From: Egicoccus sp. AB-alg6-2
Lineage (GTDB): Bacteria; Actinomycetota; Nitriliruptoria; Nitriliruptorales; Nitriliruptoraceae
Direction: 5' to 3'
Assembly (NCBI RefSeq): GCF_041821025.1
Contig: NZ_JBGUAY010000005.1
Span: 372,001-436,000 of the forward strand
DNA: 64,000 bases
A model generated the notes under the pieces. The model saw nothing but the letters and a program-made list of their open reading frames with translations. It did not search any database and had not been told where the DNA came from. The position numbers and the translations under genes are program-made. This document shows positions 43,103-48,405 of this stretch, piece by piece; within the stretch, counting starts at the first letter, position 1; the number at the start of each line of letters is the position of its first letter.

Positions 43103-43148
43103 GTGCGTCGTCTCCTGCTCCCCCGGGCGCCGGTCCGGCGACACCTCG

Positions 43149-43222
43149 TGGGCCGGGCGGGGCTCGAACCCGCGACCAAACGATTATGAGTCGTCTGCTC
43201 TGACCAGCTGAGCTACCGGCCC
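43149..43222 (-). tRNA. tRNA-Met (anticodon CAT)
   Basis: 74 nt on the minus strand with a 7-bp acceptor stem GGGCCGG/CCGGCCC, D arm GCTC/GAGC, anticodon loop CTCATAA and T arm GCGGG-TTCGAGC-CCCGC. The discriminator is A and CCA is not encoded. CAT could also be the lysidine-modified tRNA-Ile, but the anticodon-arm sequence resembles elongator Met. It is probably transcribed just before the DUF456 gene. Confidence 0.92.
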
Positions 43223-43258: not shown

Positions 43259-43999
43259 TCAGGGCACCTCACCGAAGGGCGCGGTGGTCGCGGCCAGCGT
43301 CGCCTCGGCACGGGTCGCGGCTGGCGCGCCGTCGACGAAGACGGCGACGCGGTACTCCTCGGTGCTGCCCGACGGCAGGGTGGTGGCCCAGGTCACCGGC
43401 AGCGCCACGCTGCTGGTGCCGCTGGCGCCGGCCTGGCCGGTCAGGATCGACCACGAGGAGGGGCCCTGGCGGTCGTCACTCGCGCGGAAGACGAACGCCT
43501 CGACCTCGCACGGACACGAGCTCGCTCCCTGGTCGGTGAAGACGGTCACCGACCCCTGCAGGACGACGTAGCCGGAACCACCGCGCTCACCGGTGGCATC
43601 CACCGTCACAGTGACCGGGACGCCGCTGCCTGCGCTGAGCGTGGTGGTGCTGTGGTCGGCCGTCACCCGCGGCAGCCCGCGGGTGAGGAAGGTCGCCATC
43701 TGGCCGCGGTTGACGGCGTTGCCGGCGCAGTAGCGGTCGGTGGTGCAGCCCGCGGTGATCCCGGAACCGGCGAGTTCACCGATCGCGGCGTGGTGGGTGC
43801 TGTTGGCGGGCACGTCGGTGAACACGTGGCTGGCCGCGGCCGGGACGGCGACCGCGAGGATGGCGAGCGAGAGCACGAGCAGCAGGCTGCGGCGGCGGGT
43901 CGTCAGCATGGGGGAACGCCTTTCGCGGTCGGATTCGGTCGAGGCGACCGACGAGGTGGCGGGACGGCCCGAGCGGGAGGTGGAGGACGACGGATTCAT
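43259..43999 (-). CDS. Secreted protein with S-layer-homology-like domain, last gene of mau-like operon
   Basis: 246 residues from ATG 43999, which overlaps the stop of the upstream gene as ATGA and has GGAG 6 nt before it; a shorter start at 43909 has no ribosome binding site. A long polar n-region precedes a signal peptide ending near PAAASH. An SLH-like segment follows, with FTDVP, AIGELAGSGITAGC and NRGQMATFLTR, then a beta-sandwich-like region. It may anchor to, or be displayed on, the wall. The paired Cys and its place in the operon suggest a link with the MauD/MauE-type redox genes. Confidence 0.82.
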   Translation of the reverse strand: MNPSSSTSRSGRPATSSVASTESDRERRSPMLTTRRRSLLLVLSLAILAVAVPAAASHVFTDVPANSTHHAAIGELAGSGITAGCTTDRYCAGNAVNRGQMATFLTRGLPRVTADHSTTTLSAGSGVPVTVTVDATGERGGSGYVVLQGSVTVFTDQGASSCPCEVEAFVFRASDDRQGPSSWSILTGQAGASGTSSVALPVTWATTLPSGSTEEYRVAVFVDGAPAATRAEATLAATTAPFGEVP

Positions 44000-45648
44000 G
44001 ACAGCTCCGAGGCGCGTCGGGGCGTACGGGGAGCGGTTCCGTCCGGACCGCTGCCGTCGACCGCACGCGCCGGGCGCGGCGACCGGCGCGTCAGACGCTG
44101 CACGGCACCGTTGCGGTCGATGACGATCGCGCCGCCGACGAACGATGCCCGCTGCTGCCCGTTCGCGACGCGGACCACGTCGCTGGTGGGAAGCCCGAGC
44201 GCGCCGGCAGGACCGCCGGCCTCGTCGTAGGCGGCCAGGATCGGTCCGGACAGTACGCGGGCCCCGGTCCCTGGGCCGACGAAGATCGCCCCGCGTTCGA
44301 GGTCGAGGCGACGGCCGCCTCCGACCGCGCGTGGTCTGCCGGCCGGTCGACCGAGCGTGCCGCCAGGGCCGCCCTCCTCGAGGTAGCGGGCCGCGAGGTC
44401 GTCGCCGACGGCGACCAACCCGTCGCCGCCGGACGCGACCACGATGCCGCGTTCGAACCGCTGCAGGCGGACCCCACCGGAGCTTTCCTCCTCGGCGACG
44501 GGCAGCCCCACCGCGTCGGGCGATCCGGCCGCGGGTACCCGGGCGGCGGCGAGCACGTCGGCGGCCACCTGCACGACCGGTCCGCCCGCCGCCTGTGCCA
44601 CCGTGACGTGCTCGAACGTGACGACCTGGCCGCCACCGGTGCGACTCGTGCCGGTCGGGTAGCCCCAGGCGCCGGTGGGCCCGCCGGCGGCACGGAACCG
44701 TTCGTCGATGGCGCCGAGCACCGGCTGGGGCGTGGCCGAGCGGGTACGGAGGTAGATCGTCCCGCCCTGGTAGCGGACGTGCAGGCCGGCGCCGTCGCCG
44801 ACGGCCGTCACCTCGGTCAGCGGGTACGCCAACGCGGACGTGTCACCACCGAGTGAGCGATGGGTGGCATCGATCGCGCCGTAGACCGCGAGCGCACCGG
44901 TTGCCGAGCGGTAGAAGATCGAGCCGTTCTCGTACCGGCGGTACCGGCCTCCGGCGGCGCCGGCACGTTCGGGCGTGGTTGCGCGTCCGAGGATCGAGCC
45001 CGACTGCCCCAGGTCCTGGTAGCGGAGGTCGATGTGCGTGGCGTTGCTGCCGGGCAGACACGTCGAGTTGTGGCTCCGTGTGCGGTTGTCGACCCGCAAC
45101 GTGCGGTTGCACGAGGCGTCCCACTCCCAGGGGGTCATGCAGGTGACGACGCGGCAGACCACCTCGGTGACGCCGGCGACCTGGGTGTTGCACTGCCCGT
45201 AGCGGAAGTTGTTGCAGCAGACCCGTCGCTGGTCGCAGGTGCCGTCGGCGCATCGGCACGAACACGACGCGGACGGGCTGCGGTTGCAGTCGATCACGTA
45301 GCGGGCGCGCCCCATGCAGTACGGGGAATCGTCGATCCGCCACCATCCCGCGGCGTACGAACCCGGTGGGCAGGTGTTGGCGCCGTTGTTGACCGTGCAG
45401 CAGAAGGCGGTCCAGCCGCTCGAGCACGACGCGCCGGTGCCACACACCTGCGCGTACGCGCTGCCGGGCTTGAGCGCGTAACGGATGGGGTCGACCGCCA
45501 GGGCGGAGCCGACGACCGCGACCCGGCCGAGGAAGCGCCGGCGCGAAAGGCCCCGACCGGCGAGGGCACGTCCGAGACGGTCGACGACCCGGACGCTGAT
45601 GGGACCCGTGTCTTCCGGTGACGCCTGCGGCTCCGTTGCGATGGTCAT
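43996..45648 (-). CDS. Tat-exported MauA-like cysteine-rich protein fused to LGFP repeats
   Basis: 550 residues; ATG 45648 overlaps the preceding stop. A twin-arginine signal (SRRRFLG at 35-41, cleavage near SAYAQ) is followed by 18 Cys between residues 69 and 197. The TCPPGSYAAGWW, YVIDC and CSCRC segments resemble the methylamine dehydrogenase light chain, whose disulfides need MauD/MauE-type helpers. The Trp102/103 region lines up with the first TTQ tryptophan; the second has no clear match (Cys165 near that place, Trp174 and 176 later). Residues 210-520 contain several LGFP repeats (GAIDERFRAAGGPTGAWGYP is one), which in actinobacteria attach to the cell wall. Catalysis is not established. 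Confidence 0.8.
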   Translation of the reverse strand: MTIATEPQASPEDTGPISVRVVDRLGRALAGRGLSRRRFLGRVAVVGSALAVDPIRYALKPGSAYAQVCGTGASCSSGWTAFCCTVNNGANTCPPGSYAAGWWRIDDSPYCMGRARYVIDCNRSPSASCSCRCADGTCDQRRVCCNNFRYGQCNTQVAGVTEVVCRVVTCMTPWEWDASCNRTLRVDNRTRSHNSTCLPGSNATHIDLRYQDLGQSGSILGRATTPERAGAAGGRYRRYENGSIFYRSATGALAVYGAIDATHRSLGGDTSALAYPLTEVTAVGDGAGLHVRYQGGTIYLRTRSATPQPVLGAIDERFRAAGGPTGAWGYPTGTSRTGGGQVVTFEHVTVAQAAGGPVVQVAADVLAAARVPAAGSPDAVGLPVAEEESSGGVRLQRFERGIVVASGGDGLVAVGDDLAARYLEEGGPGGTLGRPAGRPRAVGGGRRLDLERGAIFVGPGTGARVLSGPILAAYDEAGGPAGALGLPTSDVVRVANGQQRASFVGGAIVIDRNGAVQRLTRRSPRPARAVDGSGPDGTAPRTPRRASELS

Positions 45649-46151
45649 CTCGTGACCTCCTCCGCCGCGACGGGATCGAGGCGGATCTGCGCCAGGACCT
45701 CCTCGACGCGGCGAACCTGTCGGTTGGCGTCGCGGCCGTCGCCGAGGACGACGTAGAGGCAGAAGGCACGACCGGCCTCGGTGAAGAAGTGCTGCCAGCC
45801 GGCCTGACCCGGCAGGGAGCGCTGCAGGGACCGGCCGCTGAACTGCCGCGGGTCGAGCCTGCGTGGCAGGCCGTTCGCGGCGAACAGCGGCGTGCCTGCC
45901 TCCTCCGCTCCGTACTCGAGCAGCGCGACAAAGCTGTCGTCCCCGGCCATCAGGTCGACGGCACCGGAGCCGAAGTCGCCGCGCTCCGCCGGCAGGGCGA
46001 ACGTGCCGAGGTGGACCACGGGCGGTGCCTCGGCGACCGCGGCAGGCGCCAACTCGCCGTCGCCCGCCTCGGGAGGCACGCGTTCGCGCCGGATGGCGCC
46101 CTCCCAGCCGTCCGGTAGTTCGGCCCGGATGCCGTGTCCACGCAGGTGCAT
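45645..46151 (-). CDS. Conserved hypothetical protein of the mau-like operon
   Basis: 168 residues from ATG 46151, with AAAGGGA upstream. It is soluble, with RGHGIRAELPDGWEG, VVHLGTFALP, GDFGSGAVDLMAGDD and FSGRSLQRSLPGQAGWQHFFTE; near the C-terminus AFCLYVVLG has a lone Cys. Similar actinobacterial proteins exist, as far as I recall, but no function is known. It couples by ATGA to the MauA-like gene and starts 10 bp after the membrane gene. Confidence 0.8.
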   Translation of the reverse strand: MHLRGHGIRAELPDGWEGAIRRERVPPEAGDGELAPAAVAEAPPVVHLGTFALPAERGDFGSGAVDLMAGDDSFVALLEYGAEEAGTPLFAANGLPRRLDPRQFSGRSLQRSLPGQAGWQHFFTEAGRAFCLYVVLGDGRDANRQVRRVEEVLAQIRLDPVAAEEVTR

Positions 46152-46161
46152 GACGTCCCTT

Positions 46162-46791
46162 TCAGATCACGGCGCCGGCGACCCCGACAGCGAGGACCGC
46201 AACCGAAGCGGCGAGGGCCCCGTCGGTGATGCGCTTGGCGAGTGACGATCGCGCGTCGAGGTGGCGGTGGTAGCGCTGCAGCGCGAGCGGCTCACGCAGC
46301 GGTGCAGTCGTCAGCAGGGGCAGCGCCCGCACCAGGCCGAAGGTCGCGCCCAGGGCCGCTCCCGCGGGGATCGACGCCGACGCGACGGCGAACAGCAGCA
46401 GCAGGTGGATCGCCGCGGTAGGGATCCGGGTGAGGACCGCCGCCCCGAGCTGGAACCCGAAGCCGGCGCCGTACACCCAGCCGCGGTAGTGGGTCAGCCA
46501 CCGCTCGTCGACCTGCCGCTGCCAGCTCGGCAGGCGCAGCGGCGCCCGTCCGGCGTCGACGGCGATCGCCAGCAGCCCGGCCAGCGCGAGCCCGCCGAGC
46601 ACCGCCTCGCGGGGCGGGACGAGCCCGGCCGCACCGAGCCCGCCGAGGAGTGCCCACCCGAGCGCCCCCGCTACGGCGAAGACGGCGCCACCACCGAGGA
46701 CGGACGCGAGCAGGTAGGCGGCGACCGTGAGGTGCCACCGTTGGCCGCGCGAGGCCTCCCCGACCGGGGAGATGCTGGCGAGCATCGACAT
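46162..46791 (-). CDS. Integral membrane protein of the mau-like operon
   Basis: 209 residues from ATG 46791; an ATG at 46785 fits the GAGG site slightly better. About five hydrophobic stretches are present (near 22-45, 47-78 and 105-165), with a conserved-looking DERWLTHYRGWVYGAGFGFQLG loop and YHRHLDARSSLAKRI before the last helix. No family is recognised. Its position between the MauD-like gene and the Cys-rich protein suggests a part in maturation or export. Confidence 0.75.
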   Translation of the reverse strand: MSMLASISPVGEASRGQRWHLTVAAYLLASVLGGGAVFAVAGALGWALLGGLGAAGLVPPREAVLGGLALAGLLAIAVDAGRAPLRLPSWQRQVDERWLTHYRGWVYGAGFGFQLGAAVLTRIPTAAIHLLLLFAVASASIPAGAALGATFGLVRALPLLTTAPLREPLALQRYHRHLDARSSLAKRITDGALAASVAVLAVGVAGAVI

Positions 46792-46794
46792 GCC

Positions 46795-46860
46795 TCAGGG
46801 GGACCAGGAGCTGCGCAGCGCGGCCACGGCGGCCAGCGTCATCCCGATCGCGAAGATCAC
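46795..46860 (-). CDS. Translationally coupled 21-residue hydrophobic micro-ORF
   Basis: GTG 46860 overlaps the MauD-like stop as GTGA and the ORF ends at TGA 46795. The TGAGG at its end supplies the ribosome binding site of the next gene. The peptide is hydrophobic (IFAIGMTLAAVAAL) with one Arg and a SSWSP end, so a single short membrane helix is possible. It may be a real microprotein or only a coupling device. Confidence 0.4.
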   Translation of the reverse strand: MIFAIGMTLAAVAALRSSWSP

Positions 46861-47594
46861 GCGTTCGGCTCCACGTCGGCGGCGAACTCGTCGGCGCGGC
46901 GGTACAGGCTCGGGTCACCGGGAGCGATCCCCGCCGCCAGCAGGTGCCGGTCGGCATCGCGTTCACGGCGCGCGTCGGCGGCGGCCTTGTCCCGCCCCGA
47001 TGACCCCTGCAGCAGCAGGCGCCGCACCGCCGGCCAGGTCGCCGCCGTGCCCTCGCCCCGAACGCGGCCCGTCGTGCCGTCGACGTGGACGACATAGGGG
47101 CTGCCGGGCACGTCGTGGGCGTCCCAGGTGGCGCTGCTCATCACCACGGTTGCGCCGGGCGGGGCCAGGCGTGCGATGGCGTCCCGGTCCTCGTCCGGTT
47201 CCTCCCTGGTCACGATGACGACGCGGGTGTCGGCGGGAACGTCCGGCGCCTCGAGCGCGGGCCAGTAGGGCCGGCAGCCGGTGCACGTCGAGGACAGAAA
47301 CACCAGCACGGTGTCCTGGCGCACGCCCCGGATCCGCAGGGCGAGCACGTCACCCGTCGGACTGACGCCGACGACGTCCTCCGCGAGGCGTCCGTCGACA
47401 GGCGCGGCGGGCGCCGTCTCGAACGCCGTGACGCCCTCGGGCAGCCGGGCACCGAGGCCGGGCTGCTCGGGATCGACGCCCGCACCCAACTCGTGCAGCC
47501 GGCGCAGGATCTCGGCGTGGCTGCGCAGCAACCCGACGACGAGGACGAGTTGCGCGGTGACGACGATGCTCAGGACGATCACCACGACGTTCAT
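46857..47594 (-). CDS. MauD-like membrane-anchored thioredoxin-fold protein
   Basis: 245 residues; ATG 47594 overlaps the MauE-like stop as ATGA. One N-terminal helix (about 3-23) anchors a domain whose active site is CTGC (C104, C107) after VLVFLSST. This is the layout of MauD, which helps form the many disulfides of MauA in methylotrophs. The C-terminal tail after residue 200 is polar. Partners are the MauE-like gene upstream and the 18-Cys protein downstream. Confidence 0.88.
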   Translation of the reverse strand: MNVVVIVLSIVVTAQLVLVVGLLRSHAEILRRLHELGAGVDPEQPGLGARLPEGVTAFETAPAAPVDGRLAEDVVGVSPTGDVLALRIRGVRQDTVLVFLSSTCTGCRPYWPALEAPDVPADTRVVIVTREEPDEDRDAIARLAPPGATVVMSSATWDAHDVPGSPYVVHVDGTTGRVRGEGTAATWPAVRRLLLQGSSGRDKAAADARRERDADRHLLAAGIAPGDPSLYRRADEFAADVEPNA

Positions 47595-48199
47595 CCGGTA
47601 CCTCCATCGATCGCCGCGGTCGGGGACGTGCGCGGCGCCGGCAACGTGACGCGTCGGGTCGCCGCCCGCAGCGCCGGCAGGCGAGTGAACAGCTGCTGCA
47701 GCGTCGCGACCGCTACGACCAGGAGCAGCACCGCCAACGCGGTCGGCACGGGCCCGAGGCCGAGCTGCCACGCCGGCGCCGGGGCGCCGGCCCCGAGCGG
47801 CAGGGCGGTCGCTGCGGCGGCCACGGCGACCACCGTGTTCGACACGACGTGCGTCGGACCGGCCGGTGCCGAGGCGGCGCCGAAGCAGCCGCAGGCCGCA
47901 CCGCGACGCTGCTGGCGGTACGCGACGAGCGCGAACCCGAGATAGGCGACCGCCAGGGCTGCCGACGGCCAACGACCGCCAACGCCCAGGACCGCCCCGG
48001 CCAGGATCAGCTCCCCGACACCGACGGCCCGCACCAGCAGCAGCGAGTGCGCCGAGCGCAAGCCCAGGGCATCTCGCGCCTCGACCGGATGCCGCAGCTT
48101 CGCGATTCCGGCGGGCACGAGCAGCCCCGCGCCGAGCAGCACCAGGACAAAGACACCATCCAGTGCGACCGGTGCCACTCCCCCGAGCTGTGCGAGCAA
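47591..48199 (-). CDS. MauE-like DoxX-type redox-associated membrane protein
   Basis: 202 residues from TTG 48199; other starts (TTG 48214, GTG 48179) are possible. Four hydrophobic helices are seen, with PAGIAKLRHP after the first, RAVGVGELILAGAVLG, and the motif AACGCFG (a CxC pair) common in MauE-like proteins. MauE proteins aid MADH light-chain maturation. It is the first gene of the operon, followed by overlaps at almost every junction. Confidence 0.85.
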   Translation of the reverse strand: MLAQLGGVAPVALDGVFVLVLLGAGLLVPAGIAKLRHPVEARDALGLRSAHSLLLVRAVGVGELILAGAVLGVGGRWPSAALAVAYLGFALVAYRQQRRGAACGCFGAASAPAGPTHVVSNTVVAVAAAATALPLGAGAPAPAWQLGLGPVPTALAVLLLVVAVATLQQLFTRLPALRAATRRVTLPAPRTSPTAAIDGGTG

Positions 48200-48405
48200 T
48201 CGTCTTCCACCCAAGGGCCCGGGTCCGACCCGGGCGTCGCGCGACGCTAGGTCACCCCGGTGGAGCGCGACAACAACCCCGTGTCGGACGGCGAAGGACC
48301 GCGCGAGAAGCGCGCTAGTTTTCCCGCCCTTGTCGGTGGTCCGTCTCGGCGGGAACCATCCGGCGTCGCCGACGTTCGCCGGAGGTCCTCGACATCGGTC
48401 CCCTC

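What the first reader, a model, noticed from the sequence alone, without database searches (positions are those of the whole stretch)
43259..48199. Mau-like operon built around a Tat-exported, Cys-rich MauA-like domain fused to LGFP repeats
Seven ORFs on one strand overlap or nearly touch: MauE-like, MauD-like (CTGC), a 21-residue ORF, a membrane protein, a hypothetical, an 18-Cys MauA-like protein and an SLH-like protein. MauD and MauE are known to support maturation of the disulfide-rich MADH light chain. Here the light-chain-like domain has a Tat signal and wall-type LGFP repeats, the second TTQ Trp is not evident, and MauB and MauG are absent. I infer a surface-displayed, disulfide-rich protein with its own folding helpers.
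Basis: partly seen in the sequence, partly recalled or inferred. Interest (0 to 1): 0.85.

Follow-up and report, generated by a model that had tools for sequence, protein, structure and literature searches.

The report
Selenocysteine MauF in a Mau-like operon
A bacterial gene cluster that makes and displays an unusually cysteine-rich surface protein also encodes a hidden selenium-containing membrane protein, a relative of the poorly understood methylamine-pathway protein MauF, which had been split in two because its selenocysteine codon reads as a stop.

Summary
The operon is real, but its key feature was missed. The '21-residue ORF' and the 'membrane protein' are one gene (46860-46162, minus strand) read through an in-frame UGA (46797-46795). 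All 37 loci of this operon type have TGA there, in the invariant motif W-S-P-U-G-x-S. The own genome carries tRNA-Sec(UCA), selA and selB. In seven genomes without selA/tRNA-Sec, and in one with them, the same column is Cys. A bacterial SECIS hairpin follows the UGA (loop about 25-33 nt downstream), and its stem covaries. The protein is homologous to MauF of Paracoccus (87 bits, WSPCG aligned with WSPUG). AlphaFold2 models the read-through product at pLDDT 96; the best fold match is the electron transporter CcdA. The operon is therefore MauE, MauD, Sec-MauF, a conserved protein of unknown function and a Tat-exported 18-Cys domain, which carries LGFP, CWB2, ricin-lectin or no C-terminal module depending on lineage. 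The Cys domain is not recognised as MauA: PF02975 is silent, no conserved Trp pair, MauB and MauG absent. Best reading: a dedicated thiol/selenol relay that matures disulfides of an exported, often surface-anchored Cys-rich protein. Sec assignment about 0.95; overall mechanism about 0.65; electron direction open.

The parts
47591..48214 (-). MauE-like membrane protein (conserved CGCF motif)
   Evidence: PF07291 49.4 bits; CGC(F) kept in nearly all of 39 homologues; matches P. denitrificans MauE at 34 bits
46857..47597 (-). MauD/TlpA-like membrane-anchored thioredoxin-fold protein, CTGC motif
   Evidence: TIGR02661 25 bits, below cut-off; matches P. denitrificans MauD at 43 bits; CxxC conserved
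46162..46860 (-). Sec-containing MauF homologue (232 aa), starting at a GTG that overlaps the mauD stop; previously seen as a 21-aa ORF plus a 209-aa ORF
   Evidence: AlphaFold2 pLDDT 95.9, pTM 0.91
46795..46797 (-). UGA codon read as selenocysteine (residue 22)
   Evidence: 37/37 TGA in this operon type, Cys codon TGC in 8 homologues; tRNA-Sec, SelA and SelB in own genome
46755..46772 (-). bacterial SECIS hairpin: UCUCCCC-GGUC-GGGGAGG, apical loop 29 nt after the UGA
   Evidence: bSECIS constraints met in 32/37 loci against 27% background (p 6e-14), 25/27 distant Sec loci, 1/8 Cys loci; covariation
45645..46151 (-). conserved 168-aa protein of unknown function, kept with the module, with a nearly invariant Cys in a GRAFCLYVVLG motif
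   Evidence: no Pfam or NCBIfam family
43996..45648 (-). Tat-exported protein: 18-Cys domain (residues 67-200, DNA 45049-45450) followed by LGFP repeats
43259..43999 (-). secreted protein with a weak SLH-like stretch, lineage-specific last gene of the operon
   Evidence: SLH E 0.087; found only in close relatives

Best explanation
The operon encodes a dedicated redox-maturation set, MauE + MauD + a selenocysteine form of MauF, together with the protein it serves, a Tat-exported domain with up to nine disulfides that is often displayed at the surface by wall- or glycan-binding modules. Well supported by sequence evidence: (1) the UGA is decoded as Sec (about 0.95); (2) the membrane protein is a MauF homologue (about 0.97). 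Inferred: (3) MauF is a CcdA-like membrane thiol/selenol carrier whose single Sec or Cys sits at the break of its first transmembrane helix (about 0.65); (4) with MauE (CGC) and the membrane-anchored thioredoxin-fold MauD (CxxC) it passes electrons so that disulfides of the Cys-rich protein are formed and proof-read after export (about 0.7); (5) by analogy with CcdA, the MauF branch supplies reducing equivalents for isomerisation (about 0.5; net oxidation is the alternative). No biochemical step has been shown.
For: Read-through: TGA at the same column in 37/37 operon loci and in about 30 more distant genomes, with invariant residues on both sides; synonymous variation with fixed amino acids between the UGA and the would-be restart ATG (Gly 37/37 by four codons, Ser 37/37 by two); loci where that ATG is CTG or GTC. 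Machinery: own tRNA-Sec with anticodon UCA, selA and adjacent selB. 16/16 UGA genomes tested have SelA; 7/8 Cys genomes lack it (p 2e-5). selA lies beside the module in G140; selA, a SelB match and tRNA-Sec lie near it in G329. SECIS. MauF homology: 87 and 75 bits to two MauF proteins, WSPCG aligned with WSPUG. Fold: pLDDT 95.9 including the 21-residue segment, best match CcdA, probability 0.96. Partnership: five-gene module; in the wider family MauE and MauD also flank Sec- or Cys-MauF, with a different Tat-exported 10-Cys protein between MauD and MauF.
Against: No selenium was measured. tRNA-Sec was not found in six UGA genomes (G076, G198, G205, G244, G285, G295); G076 does have SelA and SelB, and the other five are 73-94% complete and were not tested for SelA. 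Five of 37 operon loci fail the bSECIS energy rule. The CcdA match has E 0.03 and low TM-score (0.33, against an NMR model), is not found by sequence, and MauF lacks the second Cys of CcdA. That the Cys-rich protein is the substrate rests on gene order. In G400 and G184 a Cys-MauF lies away from the module.
Confidence: 0.65

Rival explanations
1. The UGA is an ordinary stop. A 21-residue transmembrane peptide ends there, and the membrane protein restarts at the ATG 9 nt downstream (stop-restart coupling, with GAGG as ribosome-binding site).
For: A GAGG lies about 7 nt before an ATG in 36/37 operon loci; mauD and the short ORF overlap as GTGA/ATGA.
Against: Homologues in selA-negative genomes carry a Cys codon at the column and one continuous ORF; the stretch between UGA and ATG is under in-frame amino-acid selection; some loci have CTG or GTC where the restart ATG should be; the SECIS stem covaries; MauF of Paracoccus covers both halves in one chain.
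Confidence: 0.04
2. The Cys-rich protein is a true TTQ amine-dehydrogenase light chain that has lost or swapped its heavy chain.
For: Same genomic partners as MauA (MauE, MauD, MauF); Tat signal; about 20 of the 42 weak Foldseek hits are MADH/AADH light chains; shared local pattern CPPG...W...C...Y...DC.
Against: PF02975 is silent in six module genomes with a working positive control; hhalign probability 1.8%; only the WW pair is invariant and no second Trp is; MauB absent with positive control, MauG absent; AF2 model of the domain only pLDDT 58.5.
Confidence: 0.08
3. The MauE/MauD/Sec-MauF set is a general envelope redox system and the Cys-rich protein is itself the redox-active player, for example a peroxide- or metal-handling surface protein that is reduced repeatedly rather than matured once.
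For: Reductive CcdA-like fold of MauF; Sec is usually found at redox sites (review PMC13188914); the substrate family differs between lineages while the MauE/MauD/MauF set stays.
Against: All 18 Cys are about equally conserved, as expected for structural disulfides; in P. denitrificans MauE and MauD are reported essential in methylamine metabolism, where they serve maturation (van der Palen 1997, cited in PMC7794033).
Confidence: 0.2

Closest known systems
MauF (Paracoccus denitrificans, WP_011750949, mau cluster)
   Same: Homologous over about 200 residues (87 bits), same WSP[C/U]G motif, encoded with mauE, mauD and a Tat-exported Cys-rich protein
   Different: Here Cys is Sec, the protein lacks the N-terminal extension, and no amine dehydrogenase genes accompany it
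MauE/MauD helpers of methylamine dehydrogenase and aralkylamine dehydrogenase
   Same: MauE above the Pfam cut-off; MauD matched by HMM, CxxC kept
   Different: MauD is far below the equivalog cut-off; the partner protein is not MauA
CcdA / DsbD membrane electron transporters
   Same: Best fold match, whole length, probability 0.96; first helix broken at the SPU/SPC motif
   Different: No sequence match, a single chalcogen residue instead of two Cys
Known prokaryotic selenoprotein families (119 in review PMC13188914, Table 1)
   Same: In-frame UGA, bSECIS, Cys homologues, Sec machinery
   Different: No MauF-like or SPUG-type membrane family is listed; no Pfam or NCBIfam model covers it
Streptomyces MauE(+MauD) clusters proposed as RiPP candidates (decRiPPter, PMC7794033)
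   Same: MauE/MauD beside a predicted precursor, described with 'at least 8' residues of a kind cut off in the passage read, in a Cys context
   Different: Reported there without MauF or selenocysteine; not compared by sequence here

Membership tests
Selenoprotein | In-frame UGA inside a conserved protein, flanked by conserved residues | tested here: met
   37/37 operon loci and about 30 distant genomes
Selenoprotein | Sec machinery in the same genome | tested here: met
   tRNA-Sec UCA, SelA 501 bits, SelB 263 bits
Selenoprotein | Cys at the aligned column in homologues, mainly where Sec machinery is absent | tested here: met
   TGC in 8 genomes, 7 without SelA
Selenoprotein | SECIS element downstream of the UGA | tested here: met
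   model from PMC13188914
Selenoprotein | Selenium physically present in the protein | not testable with these tools
   needs 75Se or mass spectrometry
MauF | Sequence homology over the membrane region with WSPCG motif | tested here: met
   87 and 75 bits; Cys is replaced by Sec
MauF | Encoded with mauE and mauD | tested here: met
MauF | Needed for making its Cys-rich partner | not testable with these tools
   needs a knock-out
MauA (PF02975, TTQ light chain) | PF02975 score above cut-off | tested here: not met
   (Paracoccus control 181 bits)
MauA (PF02975, TTQ light chain) | Pair of Trp that forms TTQ | tested here: not met
   only W102-W103 invariant; no second Trp conserved in all 40
MauA (PF02975, TTQ light chain) | MauA fold | tested here: inconclusive
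   low-confidence model, no significant Foldseek hit but many light-chain hits in the weak list
Methylamine dehydrogenase system | MauB heavy chain and MauG present in the genome | tested here: not met
   PF06433 absent, control 702 bits; PF03150 absent
CcdA/DsbD | CcdA fold | tested here: inconclusive
   best Foldseek match, probability 0.96 but E 0.03
CcdA/DsbD | Two redox Cys in the membrane domain | tested here: not met
   the aligned family has one invariant C/U column
MauD equivalog TIGR02661 | Score above curated cut-off | tested here: not met
   25 against 188.6 bits
MauE PF07291 | Score above curated cut-off | tested here: met
   49.4 against 27 bits

The most novel reading that the evidence does not exclude
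MauF-type proteins are a previously unrecognised family of CcdA-like membrane carriers whose catalytic Cys is Sec across much of the Actinomycetota. With MauE and MauD they form a modular selenium-dependent machine that folds different Tat-exported, disulfide-rich proteins, many of them wall- or glycan-bound. Methylamine dehydrogenase maturation is one Cys-based branch of this machine.
Probability: 0.5. Interest if true: 0.92.

Novelty: new variant of a known kind. Interest (0 to 1): 0.84.

Why it matters
It adds a membrane selenoprotein family missing from the 2026 catalogue of 119 families and from Pfam and NCBIfam, so such genes are probably annotated as two fragments or truncated. It points to the WSPC cysteine of MauF, a mau-cluster protein without a family model, as a redox site, because evolution replaces it with selenocysteine. 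That makes the role of MauF in methylamine dehydrogenase maturation directly testable by a single substitution. It also suggests that Mau-type helpers are a general maturation system for Cys-rich exported proteins, not only for amine dehydrogenases.

Tried and rejected
MauA by HMM (PF02975), by profile search of PDB, by hhalign and by AlphaFold2 plus Foldseek: no significant match, kept only as a possible remote relation. The first conserved hairpin after the UGA (GATGCT-nnnn-AGCATC) was considered as SECIS first; its apical loop is too near the UGA, whereas the next hairpin meets the published model and covaries. In-frame TGA at the end of the Cys domain in L116/L118 is a normal stop. Conserved TGA was looked for in MauE, MauD and the 168-aa protein: none in the alignments shown (output partly cut); stops seen in MauD hits of distant loci lie at gene ends. 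Dinucleotide-shuffle folding of the window hairpin alone gives only z = -2, so the SECIS case rests on comparison. Searches of open-access papers for MauF with selenocysteine gave nothing. A Pfam scan of the G038 Cys-rich protein was made in the wrong frame (protein 6) and says nothing.
Full report
WHAT IS THERE. On the minus strand, from 48214 down to 43259, lie co-directional, mostly overlapping genes. MauE-like (47591-48214) passes the PF07291 cut-off. MauD-like (46857-47597) has CTGC and a weak TIGR02661 hit. Then come the '21-aa ORF', a membrane ORF, a 168-aa protein, the 550-aa Tat/Cys/LGFP protein and a protein with a weak SLH-like stretch. The Cys domain has 18 Cys, each conserved in 35-40 of 40 homologues. 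The LGFP part matches the solved LGFP domain of Protein PS1.

CONSERVED MODULE. The Cys domain occurs in 27 of 61 relatives including the own genome and in 29 of 397 Actinomycetota genomes sampled. Thirty-three named loci come from Nitriliruptoria, Acidimicrobiia, Solirubrobacterales and other Actinomycetota. In nearly all complete loci the same five genes lie together: MauE, MauD, membrane protein, 168-aa protein, Cys protein. The SLH-like gene is restricted to close relatives. The C-terminal part of the Cys protein varies: LGFP, CWB2 (with LGFP in L043), ricin-type lectin, LGFP plus DUF4214, unassigned repeats, or nothing. The Cys domain is the constant part, and the C-terminal modules look like wall or glycan anchors.

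THE HIDDEN SELENOPROTEIN. Between mauD and the membrane ORF there is a short coding stretch, in frame with the membrane ORF and separated from it by TGA in every locus. In 37 of 37 loci the codon is TGA; the residues before it (W-S-P) and after it (G-x-S) are invariant. Ser and Pro before the TGA, and Gly and Ser after it but before the would-be restart ATG, vary synonymously while the amino acid is fixed. Read through, the protein is 232 aa, starting at a GTG that overlaps the mauD stop.

SEC MACHINERY AND CYS FORMS. The own genome has tRNA-Sec with anticodon UCA, SelA at C1:314633-315946 and SelB next to it. tRNA-Sec is present in 26 of 27 relatives with the module and in 18 of 34 without it; the exception, G008, has SelA and SelB. 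A profile of the read-through protein (A5) finds matches in 63 of 397 Actinomycetota genomes, most of them crossing one TGA. At that column eight genomes have TGC: G400, G184, G407, G112, G392, G133, G073 and G153. Seven of these lack both SelA and tRNA-Sec; G153 has both. All 16 UGA genomes tested have SelA (p 2e-5). In G140 selA lies under 1 kb from the Cys gene; in G329 tRNA-Sec, selA and a SelB match lie within about 10 kb of the module. Weak points: six UGA genomes gave no tRNA-Sec at the threshold used; one of them, G076, has SelA and SelB, and the other five were not tested further.

SECIS. [quoted passage not shown] It is met in 32 of 37 operon loci against 27% of other positions in the same genes (p 6e-14), in 25 of 27 distant UGA homologues and in 1 of 8 Cys homologues. 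The window has UCUCCCC-GGUC-GGGGAGG at spacing 29. Among the 40 loci with the other stem types, stem pairs show C-G/G-C exchanges; 91.6% of cells pair, against 70.5% (maximum 78.4%) after shuffling partners. Serine +7 is AGC in 37/37 although that codon makes up 26% of Ser codons in these genes. Cells count related sequences, so the p-values are optimistic. The energy of the window hairpin alone is not remarkable against dinucleotide shuffles (z -2).

IT IS A MauF. The A5 profile scores 87 and 75 bits with MauF of Paracoccus denitrificans and Indioceanicola, aligning SSWSPUGMSM with STWSPCGYSS. The module profiles also match their MauE (34, 26 bits) and MauD (43, 41 bits). MauF itself has no Pfam or NCBIfam model. 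So the operon holds MauE, MauD and MauF, helpers of the mau cluster, without the amine dehydrogenase.

FOLD. AlphaFold2 on 51 sequences gives pLDDT 95.9 and pTM 0.91 for the read-through protein; the first 20 residues, the supposed separate ORF, are at 96 and form the first helix, which breaks at W-S-P-U. The best PDB match is the electron transporter CcdA over its whole length, probability 0.96, E 0.03. Sequence search does not find it. From general knowledge, CcdA and DsbD carry a redox Cys after Ser-Pro in the first helix and a second one later; MauF has only one invariant C/U column. I call it CcdA-like in likely working, not a CcdA member.

IS THE CYS DOMAIN MauA? No by the tests available. 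PF02975 finds nothing in six module genomes while it rings in Paracoccus and in Thermomicrobium; hhalign gives 1.8%; only the WW pair is invariant. MauB is absent with a positive control, MauG is absent from the own genome. The AlphaFold2 model is poor (58.5). Its Foldseek list is not significant, but about half of the 42 entries are MADH or AADH light chains, so remote kinship stays possible.

A WIDER PATTERN. Outside this module MauF with Sec or Cys again lies beside MauE and/or MauD, with another Tat-exported Cys-rich protein (10 Cys, GGGWxRCC...DCC...INGD) between MauD and MauF in G136, G107, G159, G061, G081 (Sec) and G392, G112, G153 (Cys); in G038 a third, 12-Cys protein with a long C-terminal region takes this place. 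The constant part is the helper set, the variable part is the exported Cys-rich protein. Streptomyces MauE(/MauD) clusters with small candidate precursors have been noted (PMC7794033).

MECHANISM. Supported by sequence: Sec in MauF; the helper set; a Tat-exported Cys-rich partner. Inferred: the thioredoxin-fold MauD acts on disulfides of the Cys-rich protein outside the membrane; MauE (CGC) and MauF (U) exchange electrons with MauD across the membrane. The CcdA-like fold favours supply of reducing power for disulfide proof-reading; net oxidation through MauE is not excluded. MauE and MauD are reported essential in P. denitrificans (van der Palen 1997, cited in PMC7794033).

NOVELTY. The 2026 catalogue of 119 prokaryotic selenoprotein families does not list it. 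No open-access paper held here contains both MauF and selenocysteine. I rate it a new variant of known kinds: a new selenoprotein family and a selenium form of MauF.

Noticed in passing
L053:4214-4273 (G019:C254, contig end; also L026): In one relative with Sec machinery the Cys domain has TGA in place of Cys17 (GWTAF*CTIN). It lies a few bases from the contig end, so either a second Sec or an assembly error.
   Followed up: partly
L215, L216, L218-L222, L224: A second family of Tat-exported proteins with 10 Cys lies between MauD and MauF in other Actinomycetota, with Sec-MauF or Cys-MauF.
   Followed up: partly
L091 (Thermomicrobium roseum plasmid NC_011961.1, 481850-493156): Five PF02975 matches, at least one with both TTQ-type Trp by eye, alternate with large hypothetical proteins that look like beta-propellers; PF06433 does not match. 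Possibly an array of unusual TTQ-type dehydrogenases.
   Followed up: partly
L202/L225 (G400), L203/L226 (G184): In two genomes without selA the module is kept but MauF (Cys form) is encoded elsewhere.
   Followed up: no
L045 and L046, between mauD and mauF: Insertions of about 1.3 and 2.6 kb separate mauD from mauF; they hold an aldo/keto-reductase-like gene and, in L046, a transposase-like gene.
   Followed up: no
window 45645-46151: The 168-aa protein accompanies the Cys domain nearly everywhere but was not found beside the wider MauF family; one nearly invariant Cys, no known family.
   Followed up: partly
window 43148-43222: A tRNA-Met (CAU) gene on the same strand lies just downstream of the operon's last gene.
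   Followed up: no
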